From Ignavibacteriales bacterium (GTDB lineage: Bacteria; Bacteroidota; Ignavibacteria; UBA10030; UBA8401), in assembly GCA_026390635.1 (NCBI GenBank), contig JAPLFO010000089.1:1-39928 (forward strand): a stretch of DNA of 39,928 bases, read 5' to 3'. The position numbers were made by a program, and so were the translations under genes. The notes beneath the pieces are model-generated. The model saw only the letters and a list, made by a program, of their open reading frames with translations. It had not been told where the DNA came from and did not search any database. Positions 1 to 22,130 of this stretch are shown in pieces. Position 1 is the first letter of the stretch; each line of letters begins with the position of its first letter.

Positions 1-3000
1 GGCGGAACATGGACAGAAGTTCCGTCTCTGGACTTCATACCGCTGAAGACCGGAACTGCCGCAGCGCTGGATGGAAATGCCGCGGGCCATTGGAGTATGA
101 AGACCGGCAGCATTGATGTTCGCGTTGCGAATAATCAGGAGCTATGGTTCCGGTGGACCAAAAAGGGAACGTCGAGCTGCGGTCTCGCTGTGGATGACTT
201 CAGTGTCGTCTTCGAACCGACGACGCAGCCGGCCAATCTCGCTTTCTCTTTCGTCACGGCGACGATGATGACCGTCTCCTTTGCTGCGCCGGTTCCTGCA
301 TCAAGCGGATGCCTCGCCCTCAGGAAAGAAGGTTCCGCGCCGGCCGGAGTTCCCGCAGACGGTGTCTCGTACACACCGGGTGATACACTGGGTGACGCTC
401 TCGTCGTCTATTCCGGATCCGGAGCTTCGTTCGCACAGACGGGATTGAATCCGACAACCCTGTATTACTACTCATTGTTTGCATTCAATGAGAGCGGCGC
501 AGTTGTCAATTATCTGACTGCAAATCCCTTATCTGGAAGCCGGAAGACCGAGGCGTCCCGATCATCGATTGCCAGCGACGTCATTGCGGTTCCGTTGTCG
601 GAATCTGCCGTGCTTTCTTCGACAGTGACAGATCCATCTCCGCTCACCGCCGCAACCGGAATGCAGGTCTGGCAGTTTACCGTGCGGGATGGCGGCAACG
701 TCCCTGACAGCGATACAAAACCCACCATTGTGACAGGAATATCAGTGACGCAAGGACCGGGGAATACTGTCGCCGATTGGACCAGAAGCATTCTTGCGGC
801 AGATCTGTTTGACGGCGCGGTGCGACTGACCGGCGGCTCGGTGAATTCCCAATCAATTGTCTTTACGGGTTTCACTTGCATCGTGCCTGACGGCAGTTCA
901 AAAACTTTCTCGCTTCGTCTTTCTCTCAAGAAGAACGGAGTAGTTGATCATCAAGTGTTTCAATGTGCGCTTTCTCCCGCCTTGATCTCTACGGAAAGCG
1001 ATTCTCTCAGTTCTCTGATGAAATCATTCGCACCCGTTTTGTCAGACGGAACGAAGAATGTATTTCAGGTGATTGCAACAAAGCTCAATTTCAGTCAGCC
1101 GCCCGGCGCCTGTGCGGTCGGCGAGGTTCTTCCGCCGGTCATGGTGGCTGCCACGGATTCCAATAGCAATCGCGACATCGACTTCAACGGATCCGTCACG
1201 CTCACCGCAAACGGCGCAACGCTGATCGGTTCTCCGGTCACTGCATCTGCAGCGGCCGGTATGGCGGCATACAGCACATTGGTCTTCTCGACACCGGGTG
1301 CTGTTGTGACATTAACAGCCGTTTCCGGAAGTTGGTCCAGCACATCGTCTGCGTTTCAAGTTGCCGCACATCGGACGTACCACGTGGATTCCATCAGCGG
1401 AAATGATGCCGCAGACGGTTTGTCCGCCTCCACCGCCTGGAAGACTCTGACGAAGGTCAATGCGGTTGTCTTCCAACCGGGAGACAGCGTCTTGTTCAAG
1501 TCGGGCTGCACCTGGACGGGGACATTGAGACCGATGGGTTCCGGCGATTCAACCGCTGCGATAGTCATCGACCTGTACGGAGGAATCGCAAGGCCGGTCA
1601 TCAACGGGAACGGTGTCGTCGGCACCGCTGCAGTTTATTTCACCAACCAGCAATACTGGGAAGTGAACAATCTTGAGATCACAAATCCAGGCGCGACCGG
1701 TGCCGACAGACGAGGGGTGTACATCACCGCATCGAATTTCGGTTTGGTGCGCCATTGGTACCTTCGGAATCTGTACATCCACGATGTCGCCGGTACGATA
1801 GGGGACGCTCAGACAGATAAAAAGACGGCGGGGATTGGAATCGATGTCACGAATGATGCGACGAAGGCGACCCGCTACGACGATATCCTGATCGACGGCT
1901 GCACGATTGCCAATTGCAACAATCAGGGGCTCTATACCGATTTTGTGAACGGCGGTGACTACCCCATGAGTGCGGCGTGGATGAACCGGCGCTTTACGAA
2001 TGTCCGCATTCGCAACAACACGATTCATCACATTTCGAAGAACGCAATGATCATCCGCTATTTGGACGGCGGCGTGATCGAGCGCAATGTCTGCTACGAG
2101 ACGGCTATCGGCACAACGGGCAATACGATGTTCACGGTCAGCTGCAGCGGGACAGTTTTCCAATACAACGAAGGCTACTATAATCGCGCATCCACTCAGG
2201 GGAATATGGATGGGAGTATGTATGATGCCGATCTGAGGAGCACAAACATAACGTTCCAGTACAGCTACAGCCATGACAACAGTCACGGTTTACTCTGGAC
2301 CTGCACAGATCAGGCCGATTCGAATGTTGTGTGCCGTTACAACGTGAGCAAAAATGATAAAGGCATAATTTTTTGTATCAACTATCCGAATACATCGGTG
2401 TACTGCTACAACAATACGGTCTATGTCGGAGCGGGATTGTCACCCGTCATCATCTCCGAGCGGAACGGAGGCACTTCCGGCACCCCGAGGAAGTATTATT
2501 TCTACAACAACATCGTGTACAATCTCGGATCGAACGCAACGTACGAATTTCATACAAACTACACACGTATTATCGGGAACAATTTATTCTACGGGTTTCA
2601 TCCGTCGAATGAGCCGCAGGATCTTCCCCGGGTGACGGCGGATCCGCAATTCGTGAATCCAGCGACCGGCTTCACCACGGGACTGAATTCCGTCGCAGGG
2701 TTCGCTTTGAAATCGACATCGCCTGCGATCAATGCGGGGATCATGGTCCCCCGGCAGCCCAATCAGGACTATCTTGGGAATCCCGTTCCCACCGCCGGGG
2801 CGGTCGATATGGGCGCGTTTGAATTTCAAGCGGGCAATGATGTCTCCAAAGAAGCCATGACAGTTCCTCGCTCCACCCAATTGAAGCAGAACTATCCGAA
2901 TCCGTTCAACCCGACGACATCGCTGGAATTTGCCGTTGCGGCGACTGGAGAAGCAGCGATCGAGGTATATTCACTGCTGGGTGTTAAAGTTGCATCGGTC

Positions 3001-3135
3001 TTCCGGGGAATTGCACAGGCCGGCCGGATATATACAGCAACTTTTGATGCGACACATCTTTCGTCTGGTGTGTATCTATACAAACTCACGGCAGGTTCCG
3101 CCGTTCTGATAAAAAAAATGATCCTCATGAGATAG
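1..3135 (+). CDS. Secreted parallel beta-helix protein with T9SS sorting domain (5' truncated)
   Basis: The reading frame is open from the first base of the window, so the gene begins upstream and 1044 codons are visible; an ATG at 97 is internal. Residues to about 75 resemble the end of a beta-sandwich ('ELWFRWTKKG...LAVDDFSVVF'). A fibronectin-III-like segment follows (about 75-185, 'LNPTTLYYYSLFAFNESG'). From about residue 461 ('HVDSISGNDAADGLS', 'AWKTLTKVN', 'FKSGCTWTG') to about 940 it reads as a right-handed parallel beta-helix of the pectate-lyase/DUF1565 type, with many N-rich turns ('IRNNTIHHISKNAMIIR'). The last 84 residues are a T9SS sorting domain ('LKQNYPNPFNPTTS' to 'KKMILMR'). 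It is therefore probably exported and cell-surface attached or released, acting on or binding a polysaccharide; the substrate cannot be told. Neighbouring glycosidases support a carbohydrate role. Confidence 0.85.
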   Translation, partial: GGTWTEVPSLDFIPLKTGTAAALDGNAAGHWSMKTGSIDVRVANNQELWFRWTKKGTSSCGLAVDDFSVVFEPTTQPANLAFSFVTATMMTVSFAAPVPASSGCLALRKEGSAPAGVPADGVSYTPGDTLGDALVVYSGSGASFAQTGLNPTTLYYYSLFAFNESGAVVNYLTANPLSGSRKTEASRSSIASDVIAVPLSESAVLSSTVTDPSPLTAATGMQVWQFTVRDGGNVPDSDTKPTIVTGISVTQGPGNTVADWTRSILAADLFDGAVRLTGGSVNSQSIVFTGFTCIVPDGSSKTFSLRLSLKKNGVVDHQVFQCALSPALISTESDSLSSLMKSFAPVLSDGTKNVFQVIATKLNFSQPPGACAVGEVLPPVMVAATDSNSNRDIDFNGSVTLTANGATLIGSPVTASAAAGMAAYSTLVFSTPGAVVTLTAVSGSWSSTSSAFQVAAHRTYHVDSISGNDAADGLSASTAWKTLTKVNAVVFQPGDSVLFKSGCTWTGTLRPMGSGDSTAAIVIDLYGGIARPVINGNGVVGTAAVYFTNQQYWEVNNLEITNPGATGADRRGVYITASNFGLVRHWYLRNLYIHDVAGTIGDAQTDKKTAGIGIDVTNDATKATRYDDILIDGCTIANCNNQGLYTDFVNGGDYPMSAAWMNRRFTNVRIRNNTIHHISKNAMIIRYLDGGVIERNVCYETAIGTTGNTMFTVSCSGTVFQYNEGYYNRASTQGNMDGSMYDADLRSTNITFQYSYSHDNSHGLLWTCTDQADSNVVCRYNVSKNDKGIIFCINYPNTSVYCYNNTVYVGAGLSPVIISERNGGTSGTPRKYYFYNNIVYNLGSNATYEFHTNYTRIIGNNLFYGFHPSNEPQDLPRVTADPQFVNPATGFTTGLNSVAGFALKSTSPAINAGIMVPRQPNQDYLGNPVPTAGAVDMGAFEFQAGNDVSKEAMTVPRSTQLKQNYPNPFNPTTSLEFAVAATGEAAIEVYSLLGVKVASVFRGIAQAGRIYTATFDATHLSSGVYLYKLTAGSAVLIKKMILMR

Positions 3136-3252
3136 ACGTGGATCAGTATTCTGACGTCGGCACTGTCGTGCTATGAGCTCCGTGCGTGTTTACCGCTCTC
3201 GACGTGAATCGCCTGAACAATGCATTCAAAACTGATTCTGACGGACCACACA

Positions 3253-4803
3253 ATGTCCAACACCATATCCCTGCGCACGCTTGCCGTTGCCATCATCGTC
3301 TTTGTGTCCCCGGCTCTGCGTGCCGGAACCGGAGAAGCGTGGTCACTGGAAGACAAGAACCTTCTCGGATTCATCGCAACAAAGACTTCCCTGCAAATTT
3401 CGGGATCTCCCTGGGGCATTCAGGTTGGGACTCTCGAGAATGAGCATATAGGGAAGGCATCACAGATCGGTGTCAAGTGGACACGGCTGCAGGCATCGTG
3501 GCGCGATATTGAAAAGAGGAAAGGCGTCTATTCCTGGGAACAGACCGACGCGGCATTCGCGGCGACTCTTGGCAAAGGAATTATCCCGTTCGTCTGCCTC
3601 TCCGGAAGCAATCCGCTCTATTGTGCAACGACACCGGTGACCGATCCGAAGGAAAAAGAGATCTACGGTTCTTCTCTCTATCCTCCGACAAAAGATCCCG
3701 CCGCCATGTCGGCATGGCTCGCGTTCGTGCGGGCTGCTGTCGGCAGATACAGTGGACAGATACAATTCTGGGAAGTGTGGAACGAGCCCAATCATCGCCA
3801 TTATTGGGGCGCGGAACCGGACGGGAGAGAATATGGTGTCCTGCTTCGTGAAACCTCTGCAGCCATTCGCGAAAGCAATCCGAATGCAAAAGTGATCGCC
3901 GGAGCGCTCGCCGGTCTTGATCCGGACTTCACCGCAAAGTTTCTCGCAGGCGGAAACGCAAAGAATGTCGATGTTATCACGTTTCATAACTATGCAGAGA
4001 TTCCGGAGGAGAGAATCTACAAGGCGGTCGAAACGTGGAAAGTTATCGGAACATTCCACCGGAACATCGAGCTCTGGCAGGGAGAATGCGGCTATCCGTC
4101 GCACAGCAGTACGCGCGACTATCGCGGCAATGGTCCGTGGGGGATGAACATTCAGGCGAAGTGGCTGCTGCGCCAGGCATTCACAGACGTCTATTTTTGC
4201 CGGACATCAGTGAGCAACTATTTTAAGCTTGTGCATCCGGGCGGCAAGGGAGACCTGCCGAAACGGACGACGTTGACATCCCTGGACAGCATTCTGGGAT
4301 TTCCTGCGCGTGGCGGTTCGCGCGTGAAGAGCGTCGGGGTGAACGAAAAATGTCTTCTCGAAAATCCCTCTCTCGAACCAAAGCCGGCGTTCTTTGCGTA
4401 TCAGCGTTTGTGTGCGGTTTTTGATAATCGGTACAAACCTATTCCTTCAGAAGCAAAAATTGCTGTTTCAAATTCCGGATCGTTCTACGGTGTCGGCTGC
4501 GAAGACGACGCGTTTCCCTCTATCCCGTTGACTGCTGTGTTCAATTCTGAAAACGGCAGTCATCTTATTGCGTACTGGCTGCCCTGGCCGCCGCAGGAAA
4601 TCGTACAGAAGGGAACGATTACTCTCCAACTGAATACGATTCAATTTCGAAATCCGGTGCTGATTGATTTACTCACGGGCGGAGTGTATGCGGTTACTTC
4701 GGGTACTGTTCTTCAGAACGGCTCTTCCTTTGTCAATCTGCCGATGGCAGACTATCCGATGATCCTTGCGGAGAGAAATGAGATTTCGATTGTTAAGAAA
4801 TAA
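3253..4803 (+). CDS. Secreted clan GH-A glycoside hydrolase (GH39/GH5-like)
   Basis: A (beta/alpha)8-barrel glycosidase of 516 residues from the ATG at 3253. An in-frame ATG at 3220 would add 11 residues. I prefer 3253 because a signal peptide starts directly there ('MSNTISLRTLAVAIIVFVSPALRA'-type n- and h-regions), although neither start has a strong Shine-Dalgarno. 'WEVWNEPNHRHY' carries the likely acid/base Glu (residue 178), and 'ELWQGECGYPS' carries the likely nucleophile Glu (residue 278). The spacing fits the retaining clan GH-A. 'GVKWTRLQASWRDIEKRKGVYSWE' is the usual early barrel motif. The family is most like GH39 or GH5-related xylosidase/glucanase groups, but the exact substrate cannot be assigned. 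No T9SS tail is seen. It lies 117 bp after the beta-helix gene on the same strand. Confidence 0.75.
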   Translation: MSNTISLRTLAVAIIVFVSPALRAGTGEAWSLEDKNLLGFIATKTSLQISGSPWGIQVGTLENEHIGKASQIGVKWTRLQASWRDIEKRKGVYSWEQTDAAFAATLGKGIIPFVCLSGSNPLYCATTPVTDPKEKEIYGSSLYPPTKDPAAMSAWLAFVRAAVGRYSGQIQFWEVWNEPNHRHYWGAEPDGREYGVLLRETSAAIRESNPNAKVIAGALAGLDPDFTAKFLAGGNAKNVDVITFHNYAEIPEERIYKAVETWKVIGTFHRNIELWQGECGYPSHSSTRDYRGNGPWGMNIQAKWLLRQAFTDVYFCRTSVSNYFKLVHPGGKGDLPKRTTLTSLDSILGFPARGGSRVKSVGVNEKCLLENPSLEPKPAFFAYQRLCAVFDNRYKPIPSEAKIAVSNSGSFYGVGCEDDAFPSIPLTAVFNSENGSHLIAYWLPWPPQEIVQKGTITLQLNTIQFRNPVLIDLLTGGVYAVTSGTVLQNGSSFVNLPMADYPMILAERNEISIVKK

Positions 4804-14821: not shown

Positions 14822-15499
14822 TTAGTTTGCTGATGATTGAGTGTGGGATACACTCCGTGATTGAATATGCCGCGACAGCTTTCCCCACTGATCGGTGAAG
14901 ACGAACTCTTCCAGCGGCTTCCGTGAGCGAGGCGCCCGCTCCCGTTTCTGCAAATCCTCCGGAAGTCCGTCGGCTTGATCGGGATAGCCGACAGCGAATA
15001 TAACGACGGGCACAAATCCTTCCGGAATCGGATACTGTTGTATCACTTTGACAGGATCGAACCCTCCCATTTGGTGGACAGCGAGGCCGATTGCTGTCGC
15101 TTGTACTGACAGCGATGCGATCGATTGTCCGAGGTCATACCATGAATGTTGATACGCTTGCCCGTTTCTGCTGTAGGTTGTTCTTGCCAGCGCCAGCACG
15201 AGCAACGGGGCCTTTGCGGCCCATCGCTGATTGCCTTCGGCGAGGGAGTCATGCAGGGCGGAGTAGGCGATGGAATCTTCTTTTGCTGCGACGATGAAAT
15301 ACCATGGCTGTTCGTTTGCCGACGAGGGAGACCAGCGTGCCGCTTCGAAGAGTTTTGTGATTGTGTCCGGTTCAATAGTTCGATCTGAAAATGCCCGCGG
15401 ACTTCTGCGATTTGCCAGCAACTCATGAATTTCGGCCTGCGTGTTGAGCCGAGCAGGAATGAATGTGCTGTCGCTTGTGAATTCTGTCTGTGTTGTCAT
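14822..15499 (-). CDS. Nitroreductase family FMN oxidoreductase
   Basis: A 225-residue flavoprotein of the nitroreductase fold, expected to reduce nitro-aromatics, quinones or similar substrates with NAD(P)H. The N-terminal FMN-binding segment 'ELLANRRSPRAFSDRTIEPD' is typical. 'LFEAARWSPSSANEQPWYFIVA' and 'LGQSIASLSVQATAIGLAVHQMGGFDPVKV' are further family motifs, and 'VPVVIFAVGYPDQADGLPEDLQKRERAPRSRKPLEEFVF' is the usual C-terminal part, read in order. Its ATG overlaps the stop of the upstream MarR gene by 4 bp, so the two are translationally coupled and the regulator probably controls this enzyme. No signal peptide; cytoplasmic. Confidence 0.92.
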   Translation of the reverse strand: MTTQTEFTSDSTFIPARLNTQAEIHELLANRRSPRAFSDRTIEPDTITKLFEAARWSPSSANEQPWYFIVAAKEDSIAYSALHDSLAEGNQRWAAKAPLLVLALARTTYSRNGQAYQHSWYDLGQSIASLSVQATAIGLAVHQMGGFDPVKVIQQYPIPEGFVPVVIFAVGYPDQADGLPEDLQKRERAPRSRKPLEEFVFTDQWGKLSRHIQSRSVSHTQSSAN

Positions 15500-15954
15500 T
15501 GCTTCTCCTTTAGTCCCAGTCCAAGTTTTTTTAGTAATGTTGAAAGCCGGAGTTGTTCTTCTTCTGTCAGCACAGAAGCCAACTCGGTGACTCTGGTTGC
15601 ATGTTTCTGGAAAATCGTTTGAAATGTAGTGTGACCCTTGTGTGTCAGCTGTACCGTAATCATGCGGCGGTCATCGCTGCTGCGGATGCGTTCGATGAAT
15701 CCATCCTTCTCCAGGTTGTCGAGAATCACCGTGACGCAGCCGCCGGTGACGAGCGAGCGTTTTGCAATCTTGCCGGTATTAAGGGGTCCCAAATGGCCCA
15801 GCATCTCCAGCACTCCAAATTGAGGCTGGGTCAATCCATAGGACTCAATGTCCCTTCCCGTGAGCCGGCCGAATGTCGTCGATGCCCGGGCGAGTTTCAC
15901 CCACATCGAAAGAGCCAGATCAACTTTCTTTCCGTAGTGTTCTGTGGTCTTCAT
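15496..15954 (-). CDS. MarR family transcriptional regulator
   Basis: A 152-residue winged-helix regulator. The core shows 'GLTQPQFGVLEMLGHLGPLNTGKIAKRSLVTGGCVTVILDNLEKDGFIERIRSSDDRR' in order: helix-turn-helix, recognition helix, then the wing with the family 'SSDDRRM' signature and 'VQLTHKG'. A strong AGGAAGGA precedes the ATG. It is the first gene of a two-gene unit with the nitroreductase. In the 99-bp upstream gap, GTTTAAAC (15998-16005) in an AT-rich context is a candidate operator, weakly supported. By analogy with other MarR-nitroreductase pairs it may respond to quinones or electrophiles and repress the operon. A single Cys in the recognition-helix region ('TGGCVTV') could act as a redox sensor; that is inference. 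Confidence 0.9.
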   Translation of the reverse strand: MKTTEHYGKKVDLALSMWVKLARASTTFGRLTGRDIESYGLTQPQFGVLEMLGHLGPLNTGKIAKRSLVTGGCVTVILDNLEKDGFIERIRSSDDRRMITVQLTHKGHTTFQTIFQKHATRVTELASVLTEEEQLRLSTLLKKLGLGLKEKQ

Positions 15955-16053: not shown

Positions 16054-16650
16054 TCAATCACGAGCAAATACAATGAGCGGTTCGTAATTGCCGCCATCCG
16101 CTTCTTTCAACGCTGCCAAATACTTTTTACGTGCTTCTCCGGGCTTCGTAAGAGTTGTACTTCCCCAGGTAAAGACGGGTCGATCGAATCCATGAGTGAT
16201 GATCACATCTGCCATCAGCCGAGAATGCCGCCCGTTGCCATTCGGAAAAGGGTGAATAGATACAATCCTGTGACTGAAACGTACCGCAATTTCATCCGGA
16301 GGAAATACGCTGTTGGTAATCCAATGCATGCAGTCATCGAAAAGATTTTTCAGTTCCACTGCTATCATCAGCTTGTCTATGCCAAGATTTTTGTTTGATG
16401 TTCTAGATTGTCCGGCCCAACGACATGTGTTACCGAACATTCTGTGGTGCAGTTCTCTTACAAAATCCTCCCTTAGGATCTTTTCGACTGTAAATGTTCT
16501 GCTGATTGTCCATTTGATAGCATCTTCAATATTCAACTGCTCATACTCATCAAGCTCTCCGCGCTTGGTGATGCTGTGAATCAATAACCCTTCACGTTCG
16601 TCATCATCGATCGGTGTCTGGCCGTCGCTGTACTCGAAATCTAATCCCAT
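16054..16650 (-). CDS. Fic domain protein, 'mobile mystery protein B' type
   Basis: A 198-residue Fic/DOC protein. The catalytic loop HPFPNGNGRHSR is complete at residues 133-144, with the essential His133, so nucleotide transfer (usually AMP from ATP to a hydroxyl of a target protein) is plausible. The N-terminal helix region ('DDDEREGLLIHSITKRGELDEYEQLN') is that of the mobile mystery protein B family. A clear (S/T)xxxE(G/N) inhibitory motif is not visible there; 'DDEREG' keeps Glu-Gly but lacks the Ser/Thr. The start overlaps the end of the XRE gene by 10 bp, so the two are co-translated. The pair behaves in genomes like a mobile toxin-antitoxin-like cassette; the target is unknown. Confidence 0.88.
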   Translation of the reverse strand: MGLDFEYSDGQTPIDDDEREGLLIHSITKRGELDEYEQLNIEDAIKWTISRTFTVEKILREDFVRELHHRMFGNTCRWAGQSRTSNKNLGIDKLMIAVELKNLFDDCMHWITNSVFPPDEIAVRFSHRIVSIHPFPNGNGRHSRLMADVIITHGFDRPVFTWGSTTLTKPGEARKKYLAALKEADGGNYEPLIVFARD

Positions 16651-17105
16651 AAGAACTTCGGCATCTCGATTTGCAGACTTTCGGCCCTGTCTTTGATTGC
16701 CTGTGCAATCCTCTCCGGGCTGTTTTCCTGTTCTTCAAGTTTCATTGAGTGTGACGTTCTCATAACGAGGTCCTCTGCAACTTCCAAAGCCCGCTTTTCA
16801 ATCATCTTTTTGATTGTTTGTTCTTTTGGAATGAATCCGTACACAAATCGAAGATCCAGCGATTCGCCGACTTCCATCAGTTTTTTTATGGTGATGTTTT
16901 TATGTTCCTCCCGCTCTTCGATTTCCCTTGTACTCGGCACAGTTTTGTTAATGCGCCGGGCAAGCTGAGTCAACGACATGTTCAATGCCGTTCTAATTGC
17001 ATATATCCATCCCTTCGGGGGAACATCAAAATCGTTTAGGACGGCGAGTTTTTGCAGCTTTCTATCAAGCTGATCAATGGCAAGCTTTCTATCTAAAGGC
17101 AACAT
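16641..17105 (-). CDS. XRE-type regulator, 'mobile mystery protein A' type
   Basis: A 154-residue protein with a helix-turn-helix at about 30-80 ('GWIYAIRTALNMSLTQLARRINKTVPSTREIEEREEHKNITIKKL' in sequence). Family features are the N-terminal 'QLDRKLQKL' helix and 'DLRFVYGFIPKEQTIKKMIEKRA'. It is always paired with the Fic-type protein B in this family, and here it precedes it with a 10-bp overlap. A sigma70-like promoter and two near-identical palindromes lie immediately upstream, one ending 1 base before the ATG. This strongly suggests that it represses its own operon. AAGG about 10 bases before the ATG is the ribosome binding site and lies inside the proximal palindrome. Confidence 0.88.
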   Translation of the reverse strand: MLPLDRKLAIDQLDRKLQKLAVLNDFDVPPKGWIYAIRTALNMSLTQLARRINKTVPSTREIEEREEHKNITIKKLMEVGESLDLRFVYGFIPKEQTIKKMIEKRALEVAEDLVMRTSHSMKLEEQENSPERIAQAIKDRAESLQIEMPKFLWD

Positions 17106-17106
17106 T

Positions 17107-17119
17107 AGGTTATATCCTT
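17107..17119 (-). promoter_or_regulatory. Proximal operator-like palindrome of the XRE/Fic operon
   Basis: aggttatatcctt on the plus strand is an imperfect copy of the perfect palindrome 52 bp further upstream. It overlaps the ribosome binding site of the XRE gene, so a bound repressor could block translation initiation or transcript elongation. Assignment as the binding site of the XRE protein is inference. Confidence 0.5.
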
Positions 17120-17133
17120 AATATGATATTATT

Positions 17134-17162
17134 AATATATGGTAATAGCCATATATTGTCAA
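17134..17162 (-). promoter_or_regulatory. Sigma70-like promoter of the XRE/Fic operon
   Basis: On the minus strand TTGACA (17162-17157) is followed after exactly 17 bp by TATATT (17139-17134), a near-consensus promoter reading toward the XRE gene. The spacer contains the small palindrome ATATGG...CCATAT. Confidence 0.6.
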
Positions 17163-17169
17163 GTGAAAT

Positions 17170-17185
17170 TAAGGTTATAACCTTA
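17170..17185 (-). promoter_or_regulatory. Distal operator-like palindrome of the XRE/Fic operon
   Basis: taaggttataacctta is a perfect 16-bp palindrome just upstream of the -35 box. Together with the related site at 17107-17119 it brackets the promoter, an arrangement common in autoregulated XRE-type operons. Confidence 0.55.
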
Positions 17186-17376
17186 TTTGGTGGATTTCCC
17201 ACAAACTCCGCTGGCACAGGGCTCTCATTGGAACCAGCCAACAAAGGTCAGAAACACGGGATCCCGAAGGGACCCCCTTGGGGCTCGAATCCCGACTACG
17301 CCGGGACTTGAATTTGTTGGAACTAAGTGAGCAATGATTTTAGAAGTGTTTCCATGTGGAAATAATTCTGCAATGA

Positions 17377-18678
17377 TTACTTCATAAGAACAAGTCTCTT
17401 CGTTTCAGTGAATGAACCTGCCTGCCCGTTCCGACCATAGGTCGGAACGAGGTCTCGCCGTGCCATCGGCACGGCGGACAAGCGATAGAAATAGACACCG
17501 CTTGGCACATTTGAGGCATTCCATTGCCTGGAATAATTTCCCGCCGACATTTCTTCAGAGAAAAGCGTTGATATTTCTCTTCCAATCAAGTCAAAGATTT
17601 TCAGCGATACAAATGATTTAGATGGAAGACTAAAGGAAATATTCGTTGAAGGATTAAAAGGATTCGGATAGTTCTGGTCAAGACCGAAACGTGCCGGAAC
17701 CACAGTCGTGAGTTTATTCACAGATGTTATCATTTCCGACAACGGTCGTTTCCAGATACCGCCATGAGTACGACCGTAGTAGACCGTTGCGGCAATTAAG
17801 TTCGAGCCAGAGATGGCAAGTGCAGAGACAAAAGTGCTATCCGGCCATCCGGTACTAACATCCGTCCAGCTTGTGCCGTTATCGGTAGAAAGGAAGACGC
17901 CTTTGCCACGAGTTCCCGCAAATAGATTCGCGTCGGAGACGGCAAAAGCATGGACAGATAATTTCGTCAAGCCGGCTTCTGCCCAGCTTGTGCCGTTGTT
18001 AGCGGAATGATAAACGCCGCCGGAAGTTCCAGCATAGAGATTTGTTCCGCTAATGAAAAGAGATTGTGCGGAAATAGTATTTGTCAAACCGTTTTTGACC
18101 ACACTCCAGCTTGTTGCGTCATCGTTGGAGCGAAAGACATTCATCGCAGTTCCGGCAAAGAGAGACACTCCATTCACTGCAAGGGAGAAAACAGCAGAGC
18201 TCGTTAAGCCGACTGTGTCTACATGCCAGCTTGTTCCGTTGTTGGTAGAATGAAAGACGCCGCTACCTCCTGTACCCACAAAGATATTCGTGTCGGAGAC
18301 GGCAAGAGCATTGACATAAGGGTATGTCAAGCCGACGTTGTCCACATGCCAGCTTGTTCCGTTGTTGGTGGAATGATAAAAGCCGCCAGAAGTTCCAGCG
18401 TAGAGATTTGCGCCGCTGACGGCTAAAGCATAGACAGTAGTGGTCCCCACATTAATGTTCGCACTCCAGCTTGTGCCGTTGTTGGTGGAAACAGTGACGC
18501 CACTTAAAGAGCCGGCAAAGAGATTCGTGCCAGAGACGGCAAAGGAATAATAGAACCCGTCGGTTCCGGGGGTATTTGATTTAGTCCATTGGGCTTGCAA
18601 TGGATTCGTAGTGCTGAATAAAGCAAACATCAAACAGAGAAATCCGCCATGGCAAACAAATCGAAAAATGTTTTTCAT
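17377..18678 (-). CDS. T9SS-secreted beta-propeller (BNR/Ycf48-like repeat) protein, paralogue A
   Basis: A 433-residue protein with a signal peptide ('MKNIFRFVCHGGFLCLMFALF', cleavage near 'LQAQW'). It has about seven repeats of roughly 42 residues with the core 'VSGTNLFAGT-GGVFHSTNNGTSW', as in BNR/photosystem II assembly-factor-like propellers, and a T9SS sorting domain from about 332 ('FGLDQNYPNPFNPST' to 'ETKRLVLMK'). The sorting domain is interrupted by an 18-residue insert (SAVPMARRDLVPTYGRNG) encoded by a 54-bp double-hairpin sequence. AGAGG lies upstream of the ATG. Repeats are very similar to each other at DNA level, which suggests recent internal duplication. It is the only one of the three paralogues in the window that appears intact. 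The role is unknown; probably surface exposed. Confidence 0.8.
   Translation of the reverse strand: MKNIFRFVCHGGFLCLMFALFSTTNPLQAQWTKSNTPGTDGFYYSFAVSGTNLFAGSLSGVTVSTNNGTSWSANINVGTTTVYALAVSGANLYAGTSGGFYHSTNNGTSWHVDNVGLTYPYVNALAVSDTNIFVGTGGSGVFHSTNNGTSWHVDTVGLTSSAVFSLAVNGVSLFAGTAMNVFRSNDDATSWSVVKNGLTNTISAQSLFISGTNLYAGTSGGVYHSANNGTSWAEAGLTKLSVHAFAVSDANLFAGTRGKGVFLSTDNGTSWTDVSTGWPDSTFVSALAISGSNLIAATVYYGRTHGGIWKRPLSEMITSVNKLTTVVPARFGLDQNYPNPFNPSTNISFSLPSKSFVSLKIFDLIGREISTLFSEEMSAGNYSRQWNASNVPSGVYFYRLSAVPMARRDLVPTYGRNGQAGSFTETKRLVLMK
17425..17478 (-). repeat. 54-bp double-hairpin coding insert, copy in paralogue A
   Basis: Read on the minus strand, it holds two stem-loops: GCCGTGCC-gat-GGCACGGC and GTTCCGACC-tat-GGTCGGAAC, joined by gagacctc. 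The length is 18 codons, and it lies where other sorting domains read straight from 'YRL' to 'QAGSF'. Copies occur at the same position in paralogues B (partial) and C. Confidence 0.75.
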
Positions 18679-19538: not shown

Positions 19539-20781
19539 ATGAAAACGATGATGAGATGTTTGGTGGTGGTGTTTTTTGTCGGAACGATTTCGACAGAGTT
19601 GATGAGTCAGTGGGTGAAAAACGGGTTTGGACAGTATTTATGTGAGAGCTTTGGCAGTCTCCGGGAATAAACTATTTGCCGGCTCTTGGGGTAGCGGCGT
19701 TTTTCTTTCCACCACCAACGGCTCAAGTTGGACTGCGGTGAGTTCTGGATTGCCAAAAGGTGCTGGGTTGTTTTTTTGGGATACAGCTTATTATCACTGG
19801 GTAATGACCCTTGTCGCCATGGATGCGAATCTCTTTGCAGGAACATATCAAGAAGGAGGGGGCGGTGCCCCCTCCGGCGGCGTCTTTCTTTCAACCAACA
19901 ACGGAACAAGTTGGGTCAATACAGGGTTGATAAACACCGCTGGCACGAATCTCTTTGCCGGGACTGATGGCGGCGTTTTTCTTTCCGCTAACAACGGTAC
20001 AAGCTGGAGTGCAGTCAATAATGGTTTGACGAATGGTGTCCGTTGTCTTGTAGTAAGTGGCACGAATCTCTTTGCAGGGACTCGTAACGGCGTCTTTCTT
20101 TCAACCAACAACGGAACAAGTTGGGTCAATACAGGGTTGATAAACACCGATGTGAGTTCCTTTGCCGTCTCTGGCACGAAACTCTTTGCCGGGACTTATG
20201 ATGGCGACGTTTTTCTTTCCGCTAACAACGGTACGAGCTGGAGTGCAGTCCACAATGGTTTGACGAACACTAGTGTCTGGTCTCTTGCCGTCTCCGGCAC
20301 GAATCTCTTTGCCGGCTTATGGGGTAGTGGTGTCTTTCTTTCCACAAATAGCGGAACAAGTTGGACGGCGGTCAATACAGGCTTGACGAACACCACCGTG
20401 TATTCATTTGCTGTCTTGGGGACGAATCTCTTTGCGGGGACTTATGGCAACGGTGTCTGGCGCAGACCACTCTCAGAAATGATTACTGATGTCAAACAAT
20501 CAACTTCTCCATTACCAGAAACATTTTCTCTTTCCCAAAACTACCCCAACCCATTCAATCCATCTACAACAATTTCATTCAGCCTTCCCACCAAATCGTT
20601 TGTGACATTGAAAATATTTGATGTCTTGGGAAAACAGGTTTCGGAAGTGATTTCAGAAGAACTGCTCCCCGGTAATTATACGCGGCAATGGAATGCATCT
20701 GATTTGACAAGTGGGGTGTATTTCTATCGGTTGTCCGCCGTGCCGATGGCACGGCGAGACCTCGTTCCGACCTATGGTCGG
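19539..20781 (+). pseudogene. T9SS beta-propeller paralogue B, frameshifted and 3' truncated
   Basis: The natural start is ATG 19539, with AAAGGAG 8 bases upstream and a signal peptide ('MKTMMRCLVVVFFVGTI...MSQWVKNGFG'). That frame stops at 19670. The propeller itself ('DSIYVRALAVSGNKLFAG' onward) is in the +1 frame, open from 19618 after a TGA at 19615, so a one-base change near 19624-19632 separates signal peptide and body. The body has about seven 'SGTNLFAGT..GVFLSTNNGTSW' repeats and a sorting domain ('LSQNYPNPFNPSTT'). The domain breaks at 20781 inside the 18-codon insert, after 'VPTYGR'; the frame then runs out of register into paralogue C and ends at 20886. The final 'QAGSFTETKKL' strand is missing. 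Two independent lesions suggest a non-functional gene, or assembly error in repeats. Confidence 0.65.
20734..20781 (+). repeat. Double-hairpin coding insert, partial copy in paralogue B
   Basis: This matches the first 48 of the 54 bases in paralogue A, with both stems begun. The right arm of the second stem stops at ggtcgg, where the sequence changes abruptly to the signal-peptide region of paralogue C. Confidence 0.7.
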
Positions 20782-20831
20782 CTATCATTCGATTTCTCGT
20801 TGCCAGCAGTCTTGTTCTTACTCAAAGCTCA

Positions 20832-22130
20832 ATGGCACAATGGGTGCAAACCAACGGAGTGTATGGCGGTGATGTTCGGTGTCTAACGATAAGTGGCACA
20901 AATATCTTTGTCGGGACTGGTGACGGTGTTTTTCTATCAACCAATAATGGCACAAACTGGACGCAAACCATTTTGGATAGTAGCAAATACATAACTGCTT
21001 TTGTTGTAAGTGGCGCAAATCTTTTTGCCGGAACCTGGGGGGATGGAGGAGATGTTTTTCGCTCAACCAACAATGGTGCAAGCTGGAGTGCGTTGAATAC
21101 TGGATGGCATTACCCTGGTTACACAAGTAGTACTACAACTCTTGCTGTTTCTCCCAAAATGGGAGGTGATGGCATTACTACTCTTGTTGTCACATCCAAT
21201 GGGACAGGCGGAACGAATCTGCTTGCCGCCTATGATTGTGGTGTTGTGGGAGCATATCCTTGTGATGGTGTTTATCTTTCATCAGACAACGGCACAAGCT
21301 GGACGCAAACGAGTTTGAACACTATGGAAATAAGCAATATAAAAGTCAGTGGTAAAAATCTTTTTGCAGGAACATATTTCAACGGAATCTTTTGTTCCAC
21401 CGACAACGGCACAAGTTGGACTGCCGTCAATAATGGTTTGACGAATCCCGAAGTCTTTTCTCTTGCTGTTTCAGATACGAATCTTTTTGCGGGAACTTCT
21501 GGGGGCGGAATCTTTCACTCCACCAGCAATGGCATTAGTTGGACTGAGGTGAGTACCGTTGTGACTCACGACCCTATAAATTGCCTTGCAGTAAGTGGCA
21601 AATATCTTTTTGCCGGAACTTGGGAGGGTAGTGTTTTTCTCTTTACCAACAATGGCACAAACTGGACTGCGGTGAATACGGGATTGCTTACCCATCGAGT
21701 CTGGGCTCTTGCCGTCTTCGGCACGAATCTCTTTGCAGGAACTAGTAGTGGTGTTTGGAGGCGGCCGTTGTCTGAAATGACATCTATCTCTCAATCATCT
21801 TCTCAGCTAGCAGAAACATTTTCTCTTTCCCAAAACTACCCCAACCCCTTCAATCCATCCACAACAATATCATTCAGCCTTCCAACCAAGTCTTTTGTGA
21901 CACTGAAAATATTTGATGTCTTGGGAAAACAGGTCTCAGAAGTGGTTTCAGAAGAACTGCTCCCCGGCAACTATTCACGGCAATGGAATGCGTCAAATAT
22001 GCCGAGCGGGATGTATTTCTATCGTTTATCCGCCGTGCCAATGGCACGGAGAGACCTCGTTCCGAGCTATGGTCGGAACGGGCAGGCAGGTTCATTCACG
22101 GAAACGAAGAAGCTGTTACTGTTGCGGTAG
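20832..22130 (+). CDS. T9SS beta-propeller paralogue C, start lost
   Basis: The 432-residue body reads 'QWVQTNGVYGGDVRCLTISGTNIFVGTG', then BNR-like repeats and an intact sorting domain ('LSQNYPNPFNPSTT' to 'ETKKLLLLR'), again with the 18-residue insert. The first in-frame ATG (20832) lies at 'MAQW', the end of a signal peptide. Upstream in the same frame 'IIRFLVASSLVLTQSS' is clearly the rest of that signal peptide, but no ATG, GTG or TTG precedes it before the sequence becomes paralogue B (junction 20781/20782). The natural start appears to have been deleted. If translated from 20832 the product would lack an export signal, so it would not reach the T9SS. Treat as probably inactive unless the junction is an assembly artefact. 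Confidence 0.65.
   Translation: MAQWVQTNGVYGGDVRCLTISGTNIFVGTGDGVFLSTNNGTNWTQTILDSSKYITAFVVSGANLFAGTWGDGGDVFRSTNNGASWSALNTGWHYPGYTSSTTTLAVSPKMGGDGITTLVVTSNGTGGTNLLAAYDCGVVGAYPCDGVYLSSDNGTSWTQTSLNTMEISNIKVSGKNLFAGTYFNGIFCSTDNGTSWTAVNNGLTNPEVFSLAVSDTNLFAGTSGGGIFHSTSNGISWTEVSTVVTHDPINCLAVSGKYLFAGTWEGSVFLFTNNGTNWTAVNTGLLTHRVWALAVFGTNLFAGTSSGVWRRPLSEMTSISQSSSQLAETFSLSQNYPNPFNPSTTISFSLPTKSFVTLKIFDVLGKQVSEVVSEELLPGNYSRQWNASNMPSGMYFYRLSAVPMARRDLVPSYGRNGQAGSFTETKKLLLLR
22029..22082 (+). repeat. 54-bp double-hairpin coding insert, copy in paralogue C
   Basis: A full 18-codon copy with a few changes from copy A (ccaatggcacgga and gagctatggtc in the stems). It lies at the identical place in the sorting domain, between 'FYRL' and 'QAGSF'. 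Confidence 0.75.

What the first reader, a model, noticed from the sequence alone, without database searches (positions are those of the whole stretch)
17100..17190. Compact autoregulatory control region of a Fic/XRE 'mobile mystery' pair
TTGACA-17 bp-TATATT is bracketed by two copies of the same palindrome (perfect taaggttataacctta upstream; aggttatatcctt 1 base before the ATG, over the ribosome binding site). The downstream Fic protein has a complete HPFxxGNGRxxR motif but no clear Ser/Thr-containing inhibitory motif, so the XRE protein or its repression may be the restraint on the enzyme. The 'mobile mystery' family is established; its biological role is not.
Basis: partly seen in the sequence, partly recalled or inferred. 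Interest (0 to 1): 0.5.

Follow-up and report, generated by a model that had tools for sequence, protein, structure and literature searches.

The report
Three-operator switch of a Fic/XRE pair
The promoter of a widespread but unexplained two-gene "mobile mystery" pair carries three evenly spaced copies of a DNA palindrome, matched in letters to the DNA-reading helix of the pair's first protein, which makes that protein the likely on-site off-switch for the possible toxin encoded behind it.

Summary
Centres lie 32 and 33 bp apart, about three helical turns. A matrix built without the window ranks these three first in the window. Across 86 non-redundant homologous loci from several phyla a repeat spacing of 33 bp (then 32) stands out (Z 31.8 at 33; 2.4 in the downstream control). 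Operator letters differ between loci and follow recognition-helix residues of A: E61 with GG in 27 of 31 loci, GG without E61 in 1 of 46. Best reading: A is a dedicated local autorepressor that can cover promoter and ribosome-binding site with three dimers on one DNA face. What restrains B is open: it lacks the Fic inhibitory motif and has Asn where AMPylating Fic motifs have Asp/Glu; A's conserved [S/T]MxLExQ recalls the inhibitory helix, but homology tests failed and B-less A proteins keep it. New variant of a known kind.

The parts
17170..17185 (.). Operator O1, perfect 16-bp palindrome TAAGGTTATAACCTTA, just upstream of the -35 hexamer
17157..17162 (-). -35 hexamer TTGACA
   Evidence: TTG at this place in 15-16 of 18 close homologous loci, window not counted
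17138..17153 (.).
   Evidence: third-ranked of all window positions by a matrix built without the window
17134..17139 (-). -10 hexamer TATATT, overlapping the right arm of O2
17105..17120 (.). Operator O3, TAAGGATATAACCTAA (minus strand), over the presumed ribosome-binding site and touching the ATG
16641..17105 (-). Gene A: XRE-type HTH protein, 154 aa, mobile mystery protein A relative (TIGR02612, 121.1 bits against a cut-off of 122.6)
16908..16976 (-). HTH segment of A (residues 44-66) with the specificity residues K54, S58, E61
   Evidence: model helices 45-51 and 56-67
16728..16748 (-). C-terminal motif of A, S120-M-K-L-E124-E-Q126; L123, E124, Q126 nearly invariant; candidate inhibitory segment
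   Evidence: against:
16641..16650 (-). 10-nt overlap of the A stop and the B start (ATGGGATTAG), likely translational coupling
   Evidence: the same -10 offset in 56 of 78 loci with a recognised B
16054..16650 (-). Gene B: Fic-fold protein, 198 aa, mobile mystery protein B (TIGR02613, 230.2 bits against 124.4)
16219..16254 (-). Fic signature HPFPNGNGRHSR in B; Asn in place of the usual Asp/Glu

Best explanation
Gene A encodes a dedicated local repressor of its own two-gene operon. A dimers bind three palindromes whose centres lie 32-33 bp (about three helical turns) apart, so they sit on one face of the DNA: one just upstream of the -35 box, one filling the -35/-10 spacer, one over the start of the transcript and the ribosome-binding site. 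Full occupancy shuts transcription of A and B; loss of A opens the operon. Shown by sequence: the three sites, their position on the promoter, the conserved spacing across homologues, their uniqueness in the genome, and the match between site letters and A's recognition helix. Inferred: binding, cooperativity, repression. Further inference: B is the effector (probably growth-inhibiting) part, translationally coupled to A and kept scarce or inactive by A, as in type II toxin-antitoxin operons.
For: Lag scan over all spacings 17-60 in the 125 bp upstream of A in 86 loci: Z 31.8 at 33 bp and 11.4 at 32 bp, all others at most 4.7; best lag 33 in 51 loci and 32 in 14 of 86. In 83 regions downstream of B the largest value is 2.4, reached at 24 and at 33 bp. 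HigA loci, 25-30 per window in five windows: at most 0.6 at 32 bp and 2.7 at 33 bp, largest value at any lag 3.8, at 34 bp. Triples with spacing 32-34: 73 of 86 at p = 0.016, the floor of 60 shuffles; with A proteins at most 50% identical, 31 of 33. Blind covariation of each A column with site letters in 78 loci: for half-site letter 4 the top columns are S58, E61, R140, K54; for letter 5, E61 then K54; summed over letters K54, E61, S58 lead. E61 and GG: 27 both, 4 E61 only, 1 GG only, 45 neither, Fisher 1.9e-15 uncorrected for descent. On the best tree, HTH columns removed, 10 pairs differ in E61: GG goes the same way in 7.3 on average, the opposite way in 0; the highest score of 288 residue traits. 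The promoter is conserved with the sites in 18 close loci without the window. A's HTH model resembles XRE-type HTH domains, Z up to 7.7. A and B overlap by 10 nt in 56 of 78 loci. Some solitary A genes keep the triple (L033, L062, L065). Published: a B homologue in Mesorhizobium loti is among the 50 most heat-induced genes, M = 4.02 (PMC3989490, passages).
Against: No binding, expression or toxicity was measured. 13 of 86 loci do not reach the lowest p. In 29 of the 73 the best triple ends more than 25 bp upstream of the chosen start, so the O3-over-RBS placement is not universal. The window's own O2 is weak (12.3 bits). Covariation is not phylogenetically secure: only one independent pair lies on well-supported branches, and for half-site letters 1, 2, 7 and 8 the best column lies outside the recognition helix. 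Four loci have E61 without GG. Two B-less A genes, L007 and L031, lack a significant triple.
Confidence: 0.82

Rival explanations
1. Biphasic controller switch (a refinement, not exclusive of the best explanation): A first activates from O1, next to the -35 box, and represses only when O2 and O3 fill, as controller proteins of restriction-modification systems (recalled) time the toxic partner after entry into a new host.
For: O1 lies just upstream of the -35 box. Controller proteins C.AhdI, C.Esp1396I and C.BclI are among the structural neighbours of A's HTH, Z 6.6-6.8, tied with many others. The pair occurs on plasmids: 234 of 72,556 records match A.
Against: The -35/-10 of the window is near consensus (11 of 12) and needs little help. 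O1 was the weakest of the three sites in 11 of 18 close loci. The shared HTH fold shows no function.
Confidence: 0.12
2. The repressor is an A-B complex (also a refinement): B bridges neighbouring A dimers along the DNA, with conditional cooperativity, as reviewed for Phd-Doc.
For: The tight 32-33 bp spacing suggests a contact between neighbours. Doc bridges Phd dimers (PMC4803016, passages) and is a Fic relative (PMC5033356, passage). A and B overlap by 10 nt in 56 of 78 loci.
Against: Solitary A loci without any B piece nearby keep the triple in three cases (L033, L062, L065, p = 0.016), so B is not needed for the sites to be kept there.
Confidence: 0.3
3. A different host regulator reads the palindromes; A's helix follows only by shared descent.
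For: Branch support for independent change is poor.
Against: The sites are found only here in the genome, site letters change between loci and follow the helix of the adjacent A, and the pair occurs in several phyla with the same layout.
Confidence: 0.04
4. Chance: AT-rich promoter DNA yields weak palindromes.
For: The control region is 24% G+C against 51% for the window.
Against: Dinucleotide shuffles of the same regions, a downstream control and a HigA control show nothing comparable at 33 bp; at most 50% identity 31 of 33 loci still pass.
Confidence: 0.01

Closest known systems
Mobile mystery protein A/B pair (TIGR02612/TIGR02613)
   Same: B is far above its cut-off, A 1.5 bits below; gene order, gene overlap, presence on plasmids and islands (PMC4886054, passage). 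A TIGR02612-like neighbour of a Fic gene in a Geobacter cas locus was already called an antitoxin (PMC3936711, passage).
   Different: No paper that I found describes its operators (searches; listings and passages of one open-licence library).
XRE-antitoxin autoregulated type II toxin-antitoxin operons (HipBA, HigBA)
   Same: Operon-encoded HTH protein that binds its own promoter; A's HTH model aligns with HipB and HigA structures, Z 6.4-7.4, below the level at which a match stands out.
   Different: Three co-facial sites at 32-33 bp kept across phyla; HigA loci of the phylum show no comparable spacing. Fic rather than kinase or RNase partner. That HipB has four operators is recalled, not from a call.
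Class I FicTA (EcFicA-EcFicT, VbhA-VbhT)
   Same: Small upstream gene overlapping a Fic gene of about 200 aa (yhfG-fic); B's model aligns with VbhT 29-192 and EcFicT 32-191; A has [S/T]xxLE where EcFicA has SRRLEG (PMC5033356, passages).
   Different: No detectable homology between A's C-terminal part and EcFicA (hhalign probability 0.3%). EcFicA is only 55 aa. Glu, not Gly/Asn, follows the Glu in the window.
Phd-Doc
   Same: DNA-binding antitoxin with a Fic-related partner (PMC4803016; PMC5033356; passages).
   Different: Phd has the Phd/YefM DNA-binding fold, not an HTH; B has a GNGR-type Fic motif.
CccR
   Same: Fic plus DNA-binding protein that represses its own gene (PMC9755527, passages).
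   Different: One fused class II protein with its own inhibitory motif; here two proteins and no such motif in the window's B.

Membership tests
Mobile mystery protein A (TIGR02612) | Score at or above the curated cut-off of 122.6 bits | tested here: not met
   121.1 bits, 1.5 below, over profile positions 2-149 of 150. Relatives with 61-68% identity in the best segment, such as L039, L042-L045, score above it. I call it a close relative, not a certified member.
Mobile mystery protein B (TIGR02613) | Score at or above the curated cut-off of 124.4 bits | tested here: met
   230.2 bits
AMPylating Fic enzymes | Motif HxFx(D/E)GNGRxxR with an acidic residue that coordinates magnesium | tested here: not met
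   HPFPNGNGRHSR; HxFxNGNGRxxR in 75 of 77 B proteins. Motif as stated in PMC8401265 (passage). BepC proteins with Lys there still bind nucleotide (same passage set), so activity is not excluded.
Class II Fic (own N-terminal inhibitory helix) | [S/T]xxxE[G/N] before the Fic core | tested here: not met
   Absent in the window's B; 2 of 77 B proteins have a match in the first 45 residues. The low-confidence model has a helix at 16-28.
Class III Fic (own C-terminal inhibitory helix) | [S/T]xxxE[G/N] after the Fic core | tested here: not met
   5 of 77 B proteins have a match after the core; the window's B has none by its sequence.
Class I FicTA | Partner protein carries [S/T]xxxE[G/N] | tested here: not met
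   A has S120-M-K-L-E124-E125: Ser and Glu present, Gly/Asn not. 12 of 86 A proteins fit the full motif at this place.
Class I FicTA | Antitoxin homologous to FicA/VbhA | tested here: inconclusive
   hhalign against one FicA, probability 0.3%; no Fic antitoxin among 8 PDB sequences at E up to 10; PF18495 not found in the own genome, and no control genome rang.
Type II toxin-antitoxin operon | Two overlapping genes with an HTH protein and operator-like sites at their promoter | tested here: met
Type II toxin-antitoxin operon | B is toxic and A neutralises it by binding | not testable with these tools
   Needs expression and pull-down.

The most novel reading that the evidence does not exclude
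Mobile mystery protein A is a two-in-one restraint: its XRE half shuts the operon through a three-site, 33-bp-pitch operator array, and its C-terminal [S/T]MxLExQ segment inserts an inhibitory glutamate (E124) into the active site of B. This would be a Fic toxin-antitoxin class in which the inhibitory helix is carried by the DNA-binding repressor, on an enzyme with an unusual Asn-type Fic motif.
Probability: 0.2. Interest if true: 0.72.

Novelty: new variant of a known kind. Interest (0 to 1): 0.5.

Why it matters
The pair is spread over plasmids and chromosomes of several phyla, and its name says that its role is unknown. The operator array gives it a concrete, cheap test: which DNA A reads, how spacing matters, and whether the operon opens when A is lost. 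Because site letters and helix residues vary together over dozens of natural pairs, the family may also offer a set of repressors with different specificities. The B features (Asn in the Fic motif, no own inhibitory motif) single out what biochemistry should ask first.

Tried and rejected
Viral contigs: scan with A, 5 stretches matched a pattern, none encodes a relative. Phage records: no match to A. Genome contigs gave only 2 loci, so the genome search and plasmid records supplied the rest.

Class I reading as homology: A's C-terminal part against EcFicA gave 0.3%, PDB sequences gave 8 hits at E up to 10, none a Fic antitoxin, and Pfam showed no VbhA or FicA among the 25 of 48 families listed. 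As a dependence test I looked at the 18 of 96 loci where my script saw no B. Several are contig ends or broken B genes. Of those with no B piece found in 900 bases or more after A, L007, L019, L031, L062, L065 and L100 keep M.LE.Q (His for Ser/Thr in L062) and L033 has lost M and Q. L055 also has no piece by that test, but its A frame ends in B-like sequence, an apparent in-frame A-B fusion. So the motif does not depend on a neighbouring B, which weakens the inhibitory-helix idea.

Fourth operator: no clear extra copy at 33 bp beyond O1 or O3; the top value was z 2.7 at unrelated offsets, -32/-33 gave 2.2/2.0. N-terminal alignment of B to solved Fic proteins, to place an inhibitory glutamate, did not reach residues before 30. 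AlphaFold models are weak (mean pLDDT 64.5 for B, 62.5 for A), so no residue geometry is claimed. A literature search for Asn-type Fic motifs gave nothing usable in the 12 of 490 papers listed. An mLife paper on Fic-1-AntF showed no promoter work by word search (PMC13327609).

Rows dropped: of 100 sources examined (window and L004-L102), 96 gave an A gene with a start; L054 and L072 were skipped as partial, and the other two gave no qualifying hit (by elimination L073 and L074). Eight rows were removed as more than 90% identical, one (L069) for a short upstream region, and L078 because its upstream region is a tandem repeat array, leaving 86. The covariation used the 78 with p up to 0.05, the tree 77 of them.

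Full report
The pair. On the minus strand, gene A (17105-16641, 154 aa) is an XRE-type protein 1.5 bits below the NCBIfam cut-off for mobile mystery protein A, and gene B (16650-16054, 198 aa) is a clear mobile mystery protein B with a Fic domain. They overlap by 10 nt, an offset found in 56 of 78 homologous loci with a recognised B. The own genome holds one match to the A family. B also matches PADLOC's candidate phage-defence model PDC-S04 at 1.4e-19.

The observation. The promoter and both palindromes are as described. A third palindrome lies between them: TATGGCTATTACCATA, 17138-17153, in the -35/-10 spacer, its arm overlapping the -10 hexamer. Centres are at 17177.5, 17145.5 and 17112.5, i.e. 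32 and 33 bp apart. A weight matrix from 54 sites of 18 homologous loci, without the window, ranks O1, O3 and O2 first, second and third in the window (25.5, 23.7, 12.3 bits; next 7.6); 20 shuffled windows had a mean maximum of 9.6 and a largest of 16.6. A degenerate pattern finds only these three places in the 3.98 Mb genome; read backwards it finds one chance place.

Homologous loci. TIGR02612 searches covered 395 genomes drawn from the phylum, 60 relatives, 98 of the order and 391 drawn from the class, with overlap between the sets, and plasmid records (234 with a match; 12 pieces fetched). 96 of 100 sources gave an A gene. After removing near-identical rows, one short one and one repeat array, 86 remain, among them plasmids of Alpha- and Gammaproteobacteria and of an actinobacterium and a Myxococcales contig.

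Conserved spacing. Without fixing the spacing, repeats and palindromes in the 125 bp upstream of A peak at a lag of 33 bp (Z 31.8) and 32 bp (11.4); no other lag from 17 to 60 exceeds 4.7. The best lag is 33 in 51 and 32 in 14 of 86 loci. The same test on 83 regions downstream of B gives at most 2.4, at 24 and at 33 bp. Five windows around HigA genes of the phylum, 25-30 loci each, give at most 2.7 at 33 bp and at most 3.8 at any lag (34 bp), where random sets of 30 mobile mystery loci give 16.0-20.7 at 33 bp. With spacing limited to 32-34, 73 of 86 loci have a triple at the lowest p that 60 shuffles allow and 78 at p up to 0.05. With A proteins at most 50% identical it is 31 of 33, and the 33-bp peak stays (Z 17.5). 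In 18 close loci centred at -73/-40/-7 the consensus shows AGG.TATA.CCT-like sites three times, with TTG at -57 to -55 and TTATATT at -35 to -29, so promoter and sites move together. In 29 of the 73 the best triple ends more than 25 bp upstream of the start, so coverage of the ribosome-binding site is not universal.

Who reads the sites. Site letters differ between loci: TAAGGnTA in the window's group, and TAAACnTA, TCAACnTA, TCAGCCTA, ACAATnTA, ATAAGAnA and others elsewhere. I asked, for every well-filled column of A, how well its residue explains each half-site letter in 78 loci. For letter 4 the leaders are S58, E61, R140, K54; for letter 5, E61 and K54; over all letters K54, E61, S58 lead. 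K54, S58 and E61 lie just before and in the recognition helix (model helix 56-67). For letters 1, 2, 7 and 8 the leading column is outside it. E61 goes with GG at letters 4-5: 27 both, 4 E61 only, 1 GG only, 45 neither (77 loci). On the best tree, built without the HTH columns, 10 path-disjoint pairs differ in E61; GG differs the same way in 7.3 on average, never the opposite way, the strongest of 288 residue traits tested. Only one such pair lies on well-supported branches, so this is strong association, not a formal phylogenetic proof. Together with uniqueness in the genome it makes A the likely reader of the sites.

Mechanism. Shown by sequence: three co-facial sites on a near-consensus promoter and a matching HTH protein encoded directly downstream. 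Inferred: A dimers fill the sites, probably with neighbour contacts since the spacing is so strict, and block polymerase at the promoter and the early transcript. Of the A genes with no B piece nearby, three keep the array at the lowest p (L033, L062, L065), L100 has p 0.049, and L007 and L031 have no significant array, so B is not always required for it. Loss of A would open the operon. In Mesorhizobium loti a B gene is among the 50 most heat-induced genes (M = 4.02; PMC3989490, passages; 48 against 28 deg C), which fits derepression but is not proof; the neighbouring locus tags mll2065 and mll2067 are not named in the main text.

The enzyme. B's model (mean pLDDT 64.5) aligns best with C. 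elegans Fic-1 and human FICD, the latter class II (PMC3667792, passage): Z about 13, rmsd 3.4-4.0, 169-177 residues for the first 15 rows. The inhibitory motif [S/T]xxxE[G/N] is absent from the first 45 residues of 75 of 77 B proteins and present anywhere in 7. The signature reads HxFxNGNGRxxR in 75 of 77; in the AMPylating motif the Asn position is Asp or Glu (PMC8401265, passage). Whether this changes the chemistry is unknown.

Could A hold the inhibitory helix? A's C-terminal [S/T]MxLExQ is among its best-conserved parts: L123 in 84 of 84, E124 in 83 of 84, Q126 in 82 of 84, Ser or Thr at 120 in 70 of 85 rows. EcFicA inserts its SRRLEG segment (S24, E28), at a helix end, into its Fic partner (PMC5033356, passages), and 12 of 86 A proteins fit the full motif. 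Against it: no detectable homology, no Gly/Asn in most, and six A genes without any B piece nearby keep M.LE.Q. I keep it as the bold reading at 0.2.

What is known. A TIGR02612-like protein beside a Fic gene was called an antitoxin in a study of cas loci (PMC3936711, passage), TIGR02613 appears under Fic/Doc among the cargo of Tn7-like transposons (PMC8649781, passage), and the pair was listed with mobile elements in Ferrovum (PMC4725956, PMC4886054, passages). Searches for the family names and for Fic or antitoxin autoregulation found no description of its operators (one open-licence library, listings and passages only).

Verdict. Real, well above chance, and wider than reported: a conserved three-operator array with every mark of autoregulation that sequence can show, and no bench test. 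The kind of system is known; this layout, as far as I could find, is not described.

Noticed in passing
window 17377-18678 (-), 19627-20886 (+), 20832-22130 (+): Three similar proteins with type IX secretion sorting tails, two with BNR/Asp-box repeats, stand next to the pair; two of the frames overlap. Looks like a local repeat family.
   Followed up: partly
window 14822-15954 (-): A MarR regulator and a nitroreductase follow B on the same strand about 100 bp downstream; possible read-through from the A-B promoter.
   Followed up: no
L055 (G045:C8), about 2727-3160: An A reading frame runs into the C-terminal end of B, an apparent in-frame A-B deletion fusion; its operator triple is not significant (p 0.131).
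   Followed up: partly
L062 (Vibrio casei plasmid), 2968-3450: A solitary A gene beside ParA/ParB with its operator triple kept and no B piece found.
   Followed up: partly
B residues 133-144, window 16219-16254: The Fic signature has Asn in place of Asp/Glu, family-wide (75 of 77); the substrate may be unusual.
   Followed up: partly
window 17258-17306: Two G+C-rich hairpins lie just upstream of O1 between the pair and the next gene; terminator or repeat element, unknown.
   Followed up: no
L053 (G093:C18): A and B are both broken in a genome of the same family as the window's, so the pair seems dispensable there.
   Followed up: no
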